DNA of 32,400 bases from Alphaproteobacteria bacterium (lineage in GTDB: Bacteria > Pseudomonadota > Alphaproteobacteria > Caulobacterales > Aquidulcibacteraceae): positions 1 to 32,400 of the forward strand of contig JAIYAO010000079.1 in the NCBI GenBank assembly GCA_027488965.1, given 5' to 3'. Below, piece by piece: positions 32 through 18,708 of this stretch (position 1 is the stretch's first letter; every line of letters begins with the position of its first letter). A model generated the notes under the pieces. That model saw only the letters and a program-made list of their open reading frames with translations, did no database searches and was not told the DNA's origin. A program made the translations under genes and the position numbers.

Positions 32-979
32 TCAGCGGGCCTGAGCGGCCTCCAGGCGGCGCACTTCGTCGAGCAGGCGCGCCTCGTTGGCAGTGCGCTT
101 GCCGTCGGCGCGCGCCAGCGCCACCACGCGGGTCACCTCGTCGAGGGTGAGGCGGGCGTCTTCGTCGGCTTCGGCGAGGCGCTTGGCGTAGTAGGCCTCG
201 AAGGCGTCGGCCTCTCCCGCCTCGGTGACGCGGGCGATGTAACCGGCGAGGCCGCCTTCGAAGGCGCGGCCGAGGAAGCCCAGCGGGGCGGGCTTCGCCG
301 GCGCCTCCAGCCAGTCGCGCCCTGCGCGCTGGCTGTCGCGGGAGAGCACGGCGGCGGGCCGCTGGCCCATCACGTGGTTGAGGATCGCCTTCACGAACAC
401 GTCCGGCCAGGCGGGATCGTTGGCGCGGCCGTCCGTGGCCGCATCGAGGGCGAACAGCCAGCGGGCCTCGGCCTCGCTCACGTGCGCGCCGCCATCGACG
501 GAGAGCGCGAAGAGACAGGTGCGGACCCATTCCACCTCGCGCGCGCCCAGCGGCGCATCGGCGACGGCGGCGGCCACCGCCTCGCGGGCGGCGACGGCGA
601 GGGCCTCAGGCACGCTTTCGGCGCGGTCGAGCACCTTGACCAGCAGCGGGGCGGCGAGCGTCCCGGCCTTGGCGGCGTGGGCCACGAGCCAGGCGGCGTG
701 CGCGTCGGTCACCAGCTTGTCGGCGCCCAGCACATGGTCGCCCACGGCTTCGATGAAGGCCTCCAGCCAGGCGGGGTCGTCGTTGGCCACGCGGCCCGCC
801 AGTGCGAAGAGGGCGGCGGCTTCCGTGCGATCCACGGCGCCGTCGGGAAACACCGCCCGGCGCACGTCCAGCGCCTCGTCGGCGGAGACGCGGCCGTCGG
901 CGGCGATGCGGTCCACCAGCGCCTGCAGCACCGGCCCCGCGGGCGGATCGTGGGGGACGGCGGCGGCGGACTGGCGCAT
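32..979 (-). CDS. TerB-like helical protein with internal duplication
   Basis: A 315-residue, Ala-rich, soluble protein with no signal peptide or membrane segment. Two parts are visibly related: residues ~50-85 contain ANDDPAWLEAFIEAVGDHVLG-like sequence and residues ~183-205 contain ANDPAWPDVFVKAILNHVMG. Both follow an acidic helix-loop with an Asp-Gly motif (ADGRVS near residue 27, SVDGGAHVS near 160). A shorter third Asp-Gly helix pair (LARADGKRTANEAR) lies near the C-terminus. This pattern recalls TerB/DjlA-like helical domains. The ATG at 977-979 is preceded by CGGAG. The 87-residue gene ends 56 bases upstream on the same strand, so the two may be co-transcribed. The function is unknown, and the TerB resemblance is inferred from pattern only. 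Confidence 0.75.
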   Translation of the reverse strand: MRQSAAAVPHDPPAGPVLQALVDRIAADGRVSADEALDVRRAVFPDGAVDRTEAAALFALAGRVANDDPAWLEAFIEAVGDHVLGADKLVTDAHAAWLVAHAAKAGTLAAPLLVKVLDRAESVPEALAVAAREAVAAAVADAPLGAREVEWVRTCLFALSVDGGAHVSEAEARWLFALDAATDGRANDPAWPDVFVKAILNHVMGQRPAAVLSRDSQRAGRDWLEAPAKPAPLGFLGRAFEGGLAGYIARVTEAGEADAFEAYYAKRLAEADEDARLTLDEVTRVVALARADGKRTANEARLLDEVRRLEAAQAR

Positions 980-1846: not shown

Positions 1847-1976
1847 ACCTCTCCCCCGCGAGGGGGAGAGGTCGAGCGCAGCGAGGGTGAGGGGGCGTCC
1901 CGCAGAACGCGCACGCGCGCCGCGACGCCCCCTCATCCGGCCTTCGGCCACCTTCTCCCCCTCGCGGGGGAGAAGG
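1847..1976. repeat. Dispersed palindromic intergenic repeat, copy 1
   Basis: The element begins and ends with perfect 11-bp hairpins: 1847-1857/1862-1872 (ACCTCTCCCCC arm) and 1951-1961/1966-1976 (CCTTCTCCCCC arm). A 12-bp inverted pair (1888-1899 with 1924-1935) joins the halves. Bases 1872-1909 match 2405-2442 of copy 2 at 36 of 38 positions. This architecture resembles palindromic repeats scattered through intergenic DNA of many alphaproteobacteria (from memory). The right-hand hairpin lies 10-35 bases after the stop of the SnoaL-like gene and could end its transcript. Confidence 0.75.
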
Positions 1977-1985
1977 GTGCACACG

Positions 1986-2366
1986 TCACGCCGTCAGCTT
2001 CGCCACGTGCGCGCTGTCGAAATATTCGTCGAGCCGCGTGATACGCCCGCCCGCCACCGTGCAGATGATGCATGCCGGCAGTTCGAACGCCGCGCCCGTC
2101 TTCGCAATGGTCCCGCGCAGCACGTGCTGCTGCACGAAACCCGTGGGCGTCTCGGACCGCGCGACGATGTCGTAGCGCTTGGCCGTGAGCGCCGTCTGCA
2201 TCCACGCCAGCACGGCCAGGTTCTCGTCCACCGTCTGGCCGGGAAAATCGAGGCCGTCGGTGTTGTGCCAGATGCGCGCGTCGGGCGCGTAGATGGCGCG
2301 GATGGCGGGGATGTCGCCGGCCTCGACGGCGGCGACGAAGCGGGCGGCGAGGTCGAGGTGTGTCAT
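1986..2366 (-). CDS. SnoaL/NTF2-like protein
   Basis: This 126-residue protein has the length and order of a SnoaL-like (NTF2 fold) domain. It has an N-terminal helix (LAARFVAAVEAGD), an acidic-aromatic strand (YAPDARIWHNTDG), and a C-terminal strand GGRITRLDEYFDS typical of the family. Members range from enzymes acting on polyketides or steroids to non-catalytic ligand-binding proteins; nothing here identifies a substrate. The protein is soluble with no signal peptide. The gene stands alone between two same-orientation copies of one palindromic repeat (1847-1976 and 2380-2473), whose nearest edges are 10 bases from the stop and 14 bases from the start. Its promoter would have to lie in or beyond copy 2. 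Confidence 0.85.
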   Translation of the reverse strand: MTHLDLAARFVAAVEAGDIPAIRAIYAPDARIWHNTDGLDFPGQTVDENLAVLAWMQTALTAKRYDIVARSETPTGFVQQHVLRGTIAKTGAAFELPACIICTVAGGRITRLDEYFDSAHVAKLTA

Positions 2367-2379
2367 GGCGCCATCCTAC

Positions 2380-2473
2380 ACCTCTCCCCTGCGAAGGGGA
2401 GAGGTCGAGCGAAGCGAGGGTGAGGGGACGTCCCGCAGAACGAGACCCATCCTGCCCGCCGCCCCCTCATCCG
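2380..2473. repeat. Dispersed palindromic intergenic repeat, copy 2 (shorter)
   Basis: The left hairpin CCTCTCCCCT/AGGGGAGAGG (2381-2390/2395-2404, GCGA loop) and the following 38 bases match copy 1 at 36 of 38 positions in the same orientation. The right half is eroded: only CCCCCTCATCCG near 2463-2473 is recognisable, and the terminal hairpin of copy 1 is missing. Confidence 0.7.
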
Positions 2474-2506
2474 TCTCGCGCTGCCGCGCGATAATGACCG
2501 GCGCCC

Positions 2507-2570
2507 GTACCGCCGGCTTCAGCCGGCCCGGTCGTGCAGAAAAAAAACTGCCGGCTGAAGCCGGCGGTAC
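2507..2570. repeat. Perfect 21-bp inverted repeat
   Basis: Bases 2507-2527 and 2550-2570 are exact inverted copies around a core of GCCGGCTTCAGCCGGC type, with a 22-base loop that contains a run of eight A. Each arm is itself nearly palindromic. This is a different sequence family from the 1847/2380 element. It could form a strong hairpin on either strand. Confidence 0.75.
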
Positions 2571-2573
2571 GGT

Positions 2574-2654
2574 AGGGCGGATGGAGCGGAGCGCAATCCG
2601 CCATCCCCGCGTCACGCACCCTCACGGCGGATTACGCTCCGCTCCATCCGCCCT
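2574..2654. repeat. 29-bp inverted repeat (one mismatch)
   Basis: Bases 2574-2602 and 2626-2654 pair with 28 of 29 positions complementary, core GGATGGAGCGGAGCG, with a 23-base loop. The element starts three bases after the previous inverted repeat and ends 29 bases before the stop of the low-GC membrane gene. From its position it may act as a bidirectional terminator for the minus-strand pccB/membrane-gene transcript. Confidence 0.75.
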
Positions 2655-2683
2655 AAGCGCGAAGCACGCTCTGCGCAACTTGA

Positions 2684-3403
2684 TCATGTGAGCGACCCTG
2701 GGGCTGTTGGAGCCGCTAGCGTGGACGCCATAAAGAAGGCTGCAGCGAAGACGGACGCTAGTGCTACGATCCCTACTGTGCGCGTAACCCAGTCAGGCAG
2801 GTCAACATCCTTATCAAAGAAGCTCAACCAAACGAAAGACAAACTGAGGAAAGCCCAAACACCTCCCAAAAGCAAAGCGTCCGCATCCATCGTTGAATAG
2901 TTGCCGAGCGTAACGGCCGAAAGGTTGACGGCCTTCACCCTGAAATCGAAATCTATATCTGCGGCCGATCCAAGAGCGGAATAATTCAAGTAAAAGCCGG
3001 AGCCTGGGGTCAATTTTAGGTCAGTAACTGTCGTAAGGTTCTTGTTGTGTCCCACACTGTCTTCGTTAACCTTGAAGTTTGCGGACCACCCCTCGAAGCG
3101 CGGAGCAACTCGGCCGTCGAATACCACCTGTACCGGTGCGGCAAACCGTGAAATGTCGATATCCGTGGTACCGCAGTTCCAAATCTTAATGGTTCCTTCC
3201 GAGACGCCCTTAGGAGCGCTTTCGTTATCGAAAGTCACCCCAATCCGAACATTAGAGACTATGTTGCCTTTTTCAACGGTAACCACATCGGAGAACAACG
3301 AAGCACTGCAGAGTCGTGTGGTAGGGGCGTTGATCGCGGTTTGAGCAAAAGGCACAATTAGCGCGAGAACAGCCGCGATGGCTGCGATCCACTGTGGACT
3401 CAC
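2684..3403 (-). CDS. Low-GC membrane protein of unknown family
   Basis: The 239-residue product has an N-terminal membrane segment (residues ~4-24), a ~150-residue polar domain with beta-strand character and two cysteines (C32, C77), and two C-terminal membrane segments (~180-200 and ~213-230) joined by the acidic loop FDKDVDLPDW. The middle domain is probably periplasmic. The start is GTG at 3401-3403, with GAGGGGG upstream and only 19 bases from the pccB stop, so it may read through from pccB. The DNA is strikingly poorer in G+C: bases 2821-2880 have 28 G/C of 60, against 42 of 60 at 3481-3540 in pccB. Codon use also differs. I recognise no family; horizontal acquisition is inferred. Confidence 0.7.
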   Translation of the reverse strand: MSPQWIAAIAAVLALIVPFAQTAINAPTTRLCSASLFSDVVTVEKGNIVSNVRIGVTFDNESAPKGVSEGTIKIWNCGTTDIDISRFAAPVQVVFDGRVAPRFEGWSANFKVNEDSVGHNKNLTTVTDLKLTPGSGFYLNYSALGSAADIDFDFRVKAVNLSAVTLGNYSTMDADALLLGGVWAFLSLSFVWLSFFDKDVDLPDWVTRTVGIVALASVFAAAFFMASTLAAPTAPGSLT

Positions 3404-3422
3404 CTGTGCCCCCTCGATCTAC

Positions 3423-4955
3423 TCACAGCGGAATATTATCGTGCTTCTTCCACGGGTTTTCCAGCTTCTTGCCCTTCAGCGCGCGCAGTGACCGGATGAT
3501 CCGCCGGCGCGTTTCGCGCGGCATGATCACGTCGTCGAGGTAGCCCAAGCTCGCCGCCACGAACGGGTTGGCGAAGCGGTCCTGGTATTCCTTGGTGCGT
3601 GCGGCGATCTTTTCGGGATCGCCCAGATCGCCGCGGAAGATGATCTCCACGGCGCCCTTCGCGCCCATCACGGCGATTTCAGCGGTGGGCCACGCGTAGT
3701 TCACGTCGCCGCGGAGGTGCTTGCTGCTCATCACGTCATAGGCGCCGCCGTAGGCCTTGCGCGTGATGACGGTGACCTTCGGCACCGTGGCCTCGCCGTA
3801 GGCGAACAAAAGCTTCGCGCCGTGCTTGATGAGGCCGCCGTACTCCTGCTTCGTGCCGGGCAGGAATCCGGGCACGTCCACGAAGGTGACGATGGGGATG
3901 TTGAACGCGTCGCAGAAGCGCACGAAACGGGCGGCCTTGCGCGAGGCGTCGATGTCGAGCACGCCCGCCAGCGTCATCGGCTGGTTGGCCACGAAGCCCA
4001 CGGTGGAGCCCTCAAGCCGGCCGAAGGCGGTGATGATGTTCCGGCCGAAGTCGCGCCCGATCTCGAACAGGTCGCCCTCGTCGGCCACCTTCTCCAGCAG
4101 CTCCTTCATGTCGTAGGGCTTGTTGGGATTGTCGGGGATCAGCGTGTCGAGGGAGGGATCGTCGCGGTCGGCGTCGTCGAAGGAGGGCCGCACCGGCGGC
4201 TTTTCGCGGTTGGACGACGGCAGGAAATCGATCAGCCGGCGCATTTCGGAAAGCGTCTCGAAATCGTTTTCGAACGCGCCGTCCACCACGCCGGACTTCG
4301 CCGAATGCACGCGCGCGCCGCCCAGTTCTTCCGCCGTGACGGTCTCGTTCGTCACCGTCTTCACCACGTCGGGCCCGGTGACGAACATGTAGCTCGTGTC
4401 GCGGACCATGAAGACGAAGTCGGTCATCGCGGGGGAATACACATCGCCGCCCGCGCAGGGGCCCATGATCACGCTGATCTGCGGGATGACGCCGGAGCCG
4501 AGGATGTTGTTCATGAAGATGTCGGCGTAGCCCGCCAGCGACTGCACGCCCTCCTGGATGCGCGCGCCGCCCGCATCGAAGATGCCGATGCACGGCGCCC
4601 CGTTCTGGATGGCCATGGCCTGCACCTTCACGATCTTCTCGGCGTGCGCCATCGACAGCGAGCCGCCGAACACCGTGAAGTCCTTGGAGAATACGTACAC
4701 CAGCCGCCCGTTCACCGTGCCGAAGCCCGTGACGACGCCGTCGCCGGGGATCTTGTTGTCGGCCATGCCGAAGTCGGCGTTGCGGTGCTCCACGAACATG
4801 TCGAACTCCTCGAAGGAGCCCGGGTCGAGCAGCAGCTCCACCCGCTCGCGCGCGGTGAGCTTGCCCTTGGCGTGCTGGGAGGCCATGCGCTTCTCGCCGC
4901 CGCCCGCGCGCGCGGCCTGACGCTTGGCTTCCAGCGCTTCGATGATGTGCTTCAT
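3423..4955 (-). CDS. pccB: Acyl-CoA carboxylase carboxyltransferase (propionyl-CoA carboxylase beta type)
   Basis: At 510 residues it has the usual PccB length. It would transfer carboxyl from biotin to propionyl-CoA, giving methylmalonyl-CoA, in a complex with a biotinylated alpha subunit that is not encoded here. Both crotonase-fold halves are present. The first has the biotin/acyl-CoA motifs [12 protein letters not shown] (127-137) and [16 protein letters not shown] (165-180). The second has VDVPGFLPG, a [13 protein letters not shown] segment and the C-terminal EIIFRGD region. The C-terminus ([12 protein letters not shown]) is typical of PccB. Acetyl- or mixed acyl-CoA specificity cannot be excluded from sequence alone. 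The gene stands apart from the usual pccA/mutase partners and is followed by the low-GC membrane gene. Confidence 0.93.
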
Positions 4956-8663: not shown

Positions 8664-9140
8664 TCACAGTCGCTGCCGCACGGAGCCCTGCACCTGGCGG
8701 GCGTCGTAGGCGTTGGCGTCGGCGGGGCGCGCGCCGCGACCAAGCCGGATCTCCAGCGAGACGGACGATTTCGCGCCCCCGCCGAGGTTGAAGCCCACGC
8801 CCGCGCCCACGCCCACCGAGGAGCGCCCGCCATAGCTGGAGGTGCCGCCGCCGATGCTGATGCGCGGACCGCCGGTCTGGCCTTCGCGGTTGGTGGCGCG
8901 GTTGTCGACGATGAACCAGTCGTACCCCTGCGCGAGCGTGATCTCGGCGGCGCGCAGCAACGCGTAGTCGGCGGCGGCGGCCTCATTGGGCGCGTCGGCG
9001 TAGGACACACGGTAGCGGTCCGCCTCGATCTTCAGCTCCGAGTATCCGGGCGCGCCGGGGCGGGCGGCAGGCGCGTAGACCGCCGGCGTCGCGCAGGCGG
9101 CGAGGGCAAGGGCTGCGAGGACAACAAGGGCGCGGGTCAT
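8664..9140 (-). CDS. Lipoprotein resembling the CC0125/CC1285 family
   Basis: The 158-residue product opens with a lipoprotein signal, MTRALVVLAALALAAC, with Cys16 as the lipidation site. The motif GYSELKIEADRYRVSYADAPNEA and the segment AAEITLAQGYDWFIVDNR (residues ~74-91) match the Caulobacter CC0125/CC1285-type lipoproteins as I remember them. A Gly/Ser-rich stretch (ISIGGGTSSYGGRSSVGVGAGVG) follows, probably beta-structured. The start overlaps the stop of the upstream pseudouridine synthase (9137-9140, ATGA). Envelope location is predicted; the molecular role is unknown. Confidence 0.8.
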   Translation of the reverse strand: MTRALVVLAALALAACATPAVYAPAARPGAPGYSELKIEADRYRVSYADAPNEAAAADYALLRAAEITLAQGYDWFIVDNRATNREGQTGGPRISIGGGTSSYGGRSSVGVGAGVGFNLGGGAKSSVSLEIRLGRGARPADANAYDARQVQGSVRQRL

Positions 9141-17687: not shown

Positions 17688-17710
17688 GGGGCGCCCGGGC
17701 TATTGCCGAT

Positions 17711-17738
17711 ACCCGCATGCAACCACGTGCCTGCGGGT
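17711..17738 (+). terminator. Weak terminator-like hairpin after the PuuD-like gene
   Basis: ACCCGCA (17711-17717) pairs with TGCGGGT (17732-17738) around a 14-base loop, 24 bases after the stop codon. No T-run follows, so it may only mark the end of the transcript with Rho or may have no role. An 8-bp inverted pair (17752-17759/17794-17801) follows in the same gap. The rest of 17688-17823 shows nothing recognisable. Confidence 0.25.
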
Positions 17739-17823
17739 TCACCGTTACCTTGAACCGATCGAGTGATTTCCATGGCGGCCACATGCGACTGTCATCGGTT
17801 CGCATGAATCGTGCAGTGCTCCC

Positions 17824-18708
17824 CTAGCATTTCCGGCGGTATTCGGAGGGTGTCATGCCAACGGCCGAACTGAAGACTTTCGCGAAATGCGCCGGACTGC
17901 CAAAGCCGGTCAACCTGCCGATCTCCGACAGGGGCAATTGAGACGTCTCAAGAAGGTGACGAGCCCTCGCCACTCGTCGTTCCATAACGAACTGATGGGG
18001 AGTCAGTCCGGTCTTCTTCTTGAATGCCCGCAGAAAGTGAAATCTGCTCAGTCCTGCAACATCCGCTAGTGATTGCAGCGCGAGGGGCGACCGGATGTCC
18101 GCCTCAATGACCTCAACGACCTGGTTGAACTGACGGTCCGAAAGACCCCCGTCGTGCTTGATCACGCCAGTGTCGGCTGCTGCAGCACGAAACAGTTCGA
18201 TGCCCAGAACCACCCCAAGTGCGTCGATGTAAAGCTGATCTGTGCTCGAAGGGTGTGCAAAGCAAAGTCGCAGCTTTTCCAGCGTCCGGAGCAGCACGGG
18301 ATTGCGAAAGTAGAGCTTCGGTTGCAGATCAAGAGATGCAGGTGTGTGGCCAAAACATTGAGCCGGAAGGTCTGGGTCGAGGTAGACGCCTACAAATGAG
18401 TTGCGGCGTCGCTCATTGAGTGACCATCCCCACACCTTGTGACCAGCGGGAACGAACGTCATCGTATTGATCAGATCGGCGCCGCCTTCCGAGCGTAGGT
18501 CACCCAGTCGCGTTTCTCCGTCGACAATCCGGATGTCATGCAGCGCGAGAAAATGCTGTTGACCGACCCAAGAGTAGTCGAACGCGGCGCCGACGCCTGT
18601 GTCGACCTGCTCAACGACCACTGAGGCGCCGTTGACGACGCTGCGCACTGGCGACTCAGCGCCATTCGCCCTGGCCTGTAGAAGAATTTGCGCTGCGGGT
18701 TGCGACAA
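17824..18708 (-). CDS. AraC-family transcriptional regulator
   Basis: A 294-residue protein with an N-terminal ligand-type domain (~1-180) and a C-terminal AraC/XylS DNA-binding domain (~190-294). Two helix-turn-helix units are visible, LQSLADVAGLSRFHFLRAFKK and LSEIGRLTGFGSPAHFAKVFS, ending in the family signature GMTPSEYRRK. The start is TTG at 18706-18708 with GAGGA six bases upstream; no better start exists. The DNA is poorer in G+C than the surroundings (36/60 and 37/60 in sampled lines against about 42/60), suggesting acquisition. The inducer is unknown. The only divergent signals are a promoter and a 13-codon frame (18805-18898), which may mark a lost target gene. Confidence 0.9.
   Translation of the reverse strand: MSQPAAQILLQARANGAESPVRSVVNGASVVVEQVDTGVGAAFDYSWVGQQHFLALHDIRIVDGETRLGDLRSEGGADLINTMTFVPAGHKVWGWSLNERRRNSFVGVYLDPDLPAQCFGHTPASLDLQPKLYFRNPVLLRTLEKLRLCFAHPSSTDQLYIDALGVVLGIELFRAAAADTGVIKHDGGLSDRQFNQVVEVIEADIRSPLALQSLADVAGLSRFHFLRAFKKKTGLTPHQFVMERRVARARHLLETSQLPLSEIGRLTGFGSPAHFAKVFSSAVGMTPSEYRRKC

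What the first reader, a model, noticed from the sequence alone, without database searches (positions are those of the whole stretch)
2684..3403. Foreign-looking membrane protein gene tucked behind pccB
G+C falls to about half in this gene against about 70% in pccB. It begins 19 bases after the pccB stop, in the same direction, and ends next to three palindromic repeats. The protein has one N-terminal and two C-terminal membrane helices around a probable periplasmic domain with two cysteines and matches no family I know. It is the best single candidate here for an undescribed accessory function.
Basis: partly seen in the sequence, partly recalled or inferred. Interest (0 to 1): 0.6.

Follow-up and report, generated by a model that had tools for sequence, protein, structure and literature searches.

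The report
One-gene turnover hotspot behind pccB
The odd low-G+C membrane-protein gene behind pccB is one of many unrelated single genes that different species of this bacterial group carry at the same spot, so the spot itself, which seems to take in foreign genes and have them read together with pccB, is the interesting thing.

Summary
The gene is real: minus strand, 3403 to 2684, 239 codons, G+C 52.5% against 65.5% in pccB, starting 19 bases after the pccB stop. Its protein has one N-terminal and two C-terminal hydrophobic segments, two cysteines, and no convincing relative in anything searched.

In six genera of this Caulobacterales family, 21 of 34 loci have, within 100 bp of the pccB stop and on its strand, a gene that at most two other loci share. 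One is the window's own next gene; the other 20 form 17 families (TIR, leucine-rich repeat, R2K ATP-grasp, Imm63-like and mostly unknowns). The same rule gives 4 of 78 behind three control genes and 6 of 132 inside the locus, but also 0 of 17 among the family's remaining loci. All 21 have lower G+C than the next 1.5 kb. Thirteen of 20 start between an ATGA overlap and base 11 after the stop, often behind a GAGG made by pccB's own stop. No repeated end was found at the site.

Best reading: imported cargo of a one-gene-wide hotspot, probably expressed with pccB. What the protein does is unknown.

The parts
2684..3403 (-). The gene of the finding: 239 aa, GTG start, one N-terminal and two C-terminal hydrophobic segments; cargo of the hotspot
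3404..3422 (-). 19-base junction between the pccB stop and the GTG start, with GAGGGGG as probable ribosome-binding sequence
2573..2655 (.). Inverted repeat, 30-nt arms 97% complementary; also follows the (different) cargo in G001 and in similar form in G002
2505..2572 (.). Inverted repeat, 23-nt arms 100% complementary, containing a terminator-like site (2565-2550, minus strand) that is not above chance
1986..2366 (-). Right flank: SnoaL-like gene (name recalled); its homologue follows pccB directly in G009 (L103), the unoccupied arrangement
32..979 (-). Second right-hand neighbour (315 aa), shared with congener G002, where different cargo lies between it and pccB

Best explanation
The gene is imported cargo of a one-gene-wide chromosomal turnover hotspot whose left edge is the pccB stop codon. 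Shown: in six genera of the family the place behind pccB is filled, species by species, with mostly unrelated, lower-G+C, same-strand single genes. Inferred: these genes arrive without a promoter and are transcribed with pccB; many are translated by ribosomes finishing pccB, because the pccB stop plus two G (TGAGG) provides a GAGG ribosome-binding sequence just before the new start codon, or because stop and start overlap (ATGA). Inferred, not shown: replacement happens by recombination in the conserved flanking genes, without an integrase at the site. The window's copy carries its own GAGGGGG and makes an inner-membrane protein with a probable periplasmic beta-rich domain, most likely an accessory envelope protein of the conflict or stress kind (about 25% for that last step; the hotspot reading itself about 85%).
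For: 21 of 34 loci meet a fixed rule behind pccB; 20 after setting aside L103, in 17 families. Controls by the same rule: secF 0 of 29, NMO-like gene 2 of 19, ATP12 2 of 30, pooled 4 of 78, Fisher p 2e-10; conserved genes inside the loci 6 of 132 (p 7e-13). 21 of 21 have lower G+C than the next 1.5 kb, mean 0.569 against 0.655. Loci with 94.8% identical pccB ends carry unrelated cargo (L124/L125). TGAGG at 14 of 20 cargo junctions, 13 of 20 starts between ATGA overlap and base 11 (counted). Families c9 and c21 recur at this place in separated lineages and c9 is found nowhere else in 60 genomes. Two of two cargo proteins tried have distant relatives on plasmids of several phyla.
Against: 0 of 17 in the family's remaining loci, so it is not a family-wide property. 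The six genera were grouped after the pattern had been seen; over all 51 usable loci it is 21 of 51. In other proteobacteria 15 of 74 loci meet the rule but several have no G+C deficit. Genes were called by my own simple scoring. The ATP12-pccB side is also variable. GG after the stop is also found in 8 of 13 loci without cargo. No expression data; the exchange mechanism is not shown; the window is one draft genome.
Confidence: 0.8

Rival explanations
1. One ancestral gene behind pccB that evolves so fast that its orthologues are no longer recognisable.
For: Same position and direction in many species.
Against: Lengths from 155 to 666 aa and different folds: TIR, leucine-rich repeats, R2K ATP-grasp, membrane proteins, soluble proteins; phmmer links only c9 and c21.
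Confidence: 0.03
2. A mobile element with site preference for the pccB end (integrase, integron-like, or repeat-borne) carries the genes in.
For: Fixed left edge at the stop; palindromic repeats behind the cargo in window, G001 and G002.
Against: The last 24 nt of pccB are not repeated behind the cargo in 16 of 16 loci tested beyond what 10 shuffles give; the right ends are not alike; no tRNA or Rfam element at the site; I noticed no integrase among the ORFs listed (60 aa up, to base 9000; 250 aa up, the rest), by eye only.
Confidence: 0.1
3. A native accessory subunit or regulator of propionyl-CoA carboxylase.
For: Directly behind pccB on the same strand.
Against: Absent from the family's other genomes, which keep pccB; foreign composition.
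Confidence: 0.03
4. The window protein belongs to an unnamed family of small membrane proteins (found here in one alphaproteobacterium, L226, and on a Scytonema plasmid, L227) with an N-terminal helix, a beta domain and C-terminal helix. This would say what the cargo is, not how it got there.
For: Similar order of hydrophobic and beta segments; a three-way alignment can be drawn.
Against: BLASTP nothing (E 34); profile comparison probability 0.1%; the two-sequence profile does not find it in G000.
Confidence: 0.1

Closest known systems
Chromosomal hotspots of horizontal gene transfer without recognisable mobile elements (Oliveira et al. 2017, PMC5635113; abstract and passages seen)
   Same: Rapid gene turnover at one place between conserved genes; no mobile element noticed; flanks fit for homologous recombination.
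   Different: One gene wide, same direction in each counted case by the rule used, directly behind a stop codon, and the place is shared across several genera rather than within one species; apparent translational coupling.
Integron gene cassettes (recalled)
   Same: Single genes without own promoters placed behind a fixed site.
   Different: No repeated end of the target behind the cargo, no array, no integrase noticed by eye in the ORF lists.
Defence islands and core defence hotspots (PMC10250203, PMC10121019; seen in search listings only)
   Same: Some cargo is of conflict type: TIR, Imm63-like, R2K.
   Different: Most cargo has no defence model: four PADLOC families, each in one of 21 members; one gene at a time.

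Membership tests
Mobile-element-free gene-turnover hotspot (sensu Oliveira et al. 2017) | Accessory genes concentrated at one place between conserved genes, above other places | tested here: met
   21 of 34 against 4 of 78 and 6 of 132; met in six genera only, 0 of 17 elsewhere in the family
Mobile-element-free gene-turnover hotspot (sensu Oliveira et al. 2017) | Diversity by turnover (different genes), not by loss of one set | tested here: met
   17 families among 20 cargo genes
Mobile-element-free gene-turnover hotspot (sensu Oliveira et al. 2017) | Within-species definition with strain sets | not testable with these tools
   One genome per species is held
Mobile-element-free gene-turnover hotspot (sensu Oliveira et al. 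2017) | Raised homologous recombination in flanking core genes | not tested
   Only indirect: near-identical pccB ends with unrelated cargo
Integron cassette array / site-specific integration | Recombination site repeated at the far end of the insert | tested here: not met
   0 of 16 loci above 10 shuffles
Known anti-phage defence protein (PADLOC 2.0.0) | Match of the window protein to a model | tested here: not met
   0 families up to E 10
Unnamed family of L226 and L227 | Significant sequence or profile similarity of the window protein | tested here: not met
   the profile has only two sequences, so it is weak
Unnamed family of L226 and L227 | N-terminal helix, beta domain, C-terminal helix | tested here: inconclusive
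   Hydropathy agrees (alignment); the structure model has mean pLDDT 44.6

The most novel reading that the evidence does not exclude
The pccB stop codon is a capture site maintained by selection: it gives any incoming promoterless gene a promoter, a ribosome-binding sequence (TGAGG) and an expression level tied to propionyl-CoA carboxylase, and this bacterial group uses it to swap single accessory genes, many of them conflict genes of undescribed type. The window protein would be a new envelope-located effector of that kind.
Probability: 0.2. Interest if true: 0.75.

Novelty: new variant of a known kind. Interest (0 to 1): 0.5.

Why it matters
Gene-turnover hotspots often hold several genes at once, which makes it hard to say which gene is selected and how it is expressed. 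A place that takes one gene at a time, in one direction, directly behind a housekeeping stop codon, is a clean natural experiment in how foreign genes become expressed. It also gives a short list of single-gene accessory functions, most of them without any described family, that can be tested one by one. If the place is generally rich in conflict genes, its coordinates can be used to find more in other genomes of the group.

Tried and rejected
Relatives of the window protein: 61 relatives, 385 genomes of the class, the family's 60 (only G005 at E 0.07 besides itself), 388 of the phylum (eight genomes besides G000 at E 0.003-0.09), GTDB contigs and viral contigs by exact peptide patterns, plasmids (none), phages (one at E 6). 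I looked at three of these weak hits (L252, L256, L251): short stretches in frames that do not resemble the protein. PDB by sequence: five entries, best E 3e-4 over 25 residues of a protein named Ika8 and of F-box/WD repeats, taken as chance. The structure model (mean pLDDT 44.6) is too poor for a fold search; none was run.

A recalled family was tested and not supported: a probe composed from memory found nothing on plasmids and one of 398 phylum genomes; that protein found one Scytonema plasmid protein, nothing in phages or viral contigs, and no significant Pfam family; kinship with the window protein was not borne out (the 20 weak genome hits were not followed).

Rejected: site-specific integration into the pccB end and an Rfam element in 2400-3500. 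Literature: five answered searches, listings only, showed no paper on a hotspot behind pccB; Oliveira et al. 2017 was read as abstract and passages.

Rows left out before counts: 57 of 60 family genomes have a pccB match. The main count uses 34 loci of genera g1, g8, g9, g10, g11 and g14, a grouping made. The remaining 19 loci (other genera, the second pccB copy of G445, and two too short, L131 of g11 and L140) give 0 of 17. Five genomes (G035, G441, G448, G461, G463) were not fetched because the contig ends inside pccB. The control sets are the best 30 of 58 matches for secF and for ATP12, and all 20 for the NMO-like gene, of which 29, 30 and 19 were usable; they are not the same genomes as the 34. 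One search also compared hand counts (NMO 1 of 19, ATP12 3 of 30), which one search replaced. The 80 loci were counted apart, less two genomes already counted and four too short: 15 of 74.

Full report
What is there. The gene lies on the minus strand, 3403 to 2684, 239 codons from a GTG preceded by GAGGGGG, 19 bases after the stop of pccB. Its G+C is 52.5% (third positions 0.57) against 65.5% (0.93) in pccB, and the lowest 720-base stretches of the window all overlap it. An open frame this long arises in 2 of 20,000 shuffles. The protein has three hydrophobic segments (6-24, 177-195, 212-230) and cysteines at 32 and 77. A single-sequence AlphaFold2 run gives helix, strands, helix, helix, at a confidence too low to say more (mean pLDDT 44.6). 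Charged residues between the last two segments suggest that the middle domain is periplasmic (inference from the sequence). Two strong palindromes follow, not three; the terminator-like site in one of them is not above chance.

Who has it. No convincing match came from 61 relatives, 385 genomes of the class, the family's 60, 388 of the phylum, plasmids, phages, or viral and GTDB contigs by exact peptide patterns. Pfam, NCBIfam and PADLOC give nothing, PHROGs one hit at E 0.24.

What lies there in relatives. In both congeners held the same place has other genes: a lipoprotein-like gene in G001 and a coiled-coil membrane protein in G002, the latter probably starting at an ATGA overlap with the pccB stop. 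I fetched the stretch behind pccB from the family and compared first genes. By a fixed rule (first called gene, on the pccB strand, start within 100 bp, at least 100 aa, tblastn hits in at most two other loci) 21 of 34 loci from six genera qualify; with no hit allowed it is 15 of 34. In G009 (L103) the qualifying gene is a homologue of the window's SnoaL-like gene at 1986-2366, so L103 shows the unoccupied arrangement and 20 cargo genes remain. By phmmer they form 17 families: 15 singletons, c9 (L104, L106, L122) and c21 (L115, L129). In G002 the gene beyond the cargo is the homologue of the window's 32-979 gene, so the wider neighbourhood is shared.

Controls. The same rule gives 0 of 29 behind secF, 2 of 19 behind a nitronate-monooxygenase-like gene (one of them the window genome itself) and 2 of 30 behind ATP12: 4 of 78, Fisher p 2e-10. 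Inside the same loci, 6 of 132 conserved genes have such a neighbour (p 7e-13). Against a family-wide rule, the remaining loci give 0 of 17. The six genera were grouped after I had seen the pattern, so the p-values are descriptive; over all usable family loci it is 21 of 51. In other proteobacteria 15 of 74 loci qualify. Some look alike, such as low-G+C single genes between pccB and pccA in Parvibaculum and Kordiimonas (L058, L100); several show no G+C deficit. The control sets are not the same genomes as the 34 (see Tried and rejected).

Cargo. All 21 have lower G+C than the next 1.5 kb. Of the 20 cargo proteins, 18 were scanned with Pfam and the window's; four pass a curated cut-off: R2K_3 ATP-grasp (L108), Imm63 (L109), TIR_2 (L117), leucine-rich repeats (L125). 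Over all 21 proteins PADLOC gives four families, each in one member, three of them TIR-type by name, and PHROGs five, each in one member. Both proteins that I tried on plasmids have distant, mostly partial relatives there: L124 in 7 records, L109 in 14.

Junctions. The 5' sides agree up to the stop and often two bases further. TGAGG is read at 14 of 20 cargo junctions, and 13 of 20 starts lie between the ATGA overlap and base 11 after the stop (my count). In 11 of these 20 the GAGG is close enough to a start codon (0-9 nt, 4-9 nt if alternative starts are chosen) to serve as a ribosome-binding sequence. GG also follows the stop in 8 of 13 loci without cargo, so it belongs to the site rather than to the cargo. 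The last 24 nt of pccB are not repeated behind the cargo in any of 16 loci tested, beyond what 10 shuffles give. L124 and L125, 94.8% identical over 500 nt of pccB, carry unrelated cargo. On a tree of 540-nt pccB ends, c9 and c21 sit in separated lineages (short, single gene), and c9 occurs in 3 of 60 genomes, each time at this place, as if genes were exchanged there.

Reading. The simplest account is a gene-turnover hotspot of the mobile-element-free kind described by Oliveira et al. 2017 (PMC5635113; abstract and passages), here one gene wide, one-directional and shared across genera. Expression with pccB is inferred from spacing. How genes come and go is inferred from the lack of integration marks and from that paper, not shown. 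The function of the window's protein is open; an envelope-located accessory protein of the conflict or stress kind is a lean from its layout and from a few other cargoes. A recalled resemblance to an unnamed family (L226, L227) did not hold up.

Noticed in passing
window 17700-18700: Second low-G+C stretch (about 0.565 per 720 bases) over an AraC-type regulator at 17824-18708 (minus; name by eye): another possible import.
   Followed up: no
L196-L225 (ATP12 to pccB): The side before pccB is variable too: several genomes have one or more genes between ATP12 and pccB, seven or eight of them apparently sharing a long one, and L201 and L219 have orphans.
   Followed up: partly
L226:1279-1950 and L227:4001-4681: Two 38% identical membrane proteins, from an alphaproteobacterium and a Scytonema plasmid, with no significant Pfam family: a small uncatalogued family.
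   Followed up: partly
L058, L099, L100: Parvibaculum, a Kordiimonadales bacterium and Kordiimonas have low-G+C orphans of 257, 112 and 249 aa between pccB and pccA, so the place may be a hotspot beyond this family.
   Followed up: partly
L141: In the A+T-rich genus g13 a 301-aa gene, TIR-like by eye, starts 171 bases behind pccB on its strand; it fails the 100-bp rule and was not counted.
   Followed up: no
window 1847-1909 and 2380-2442: A 63-nt direct repeat, 94% identical, brackets the SnoaL-like gene.
   Followed up: no
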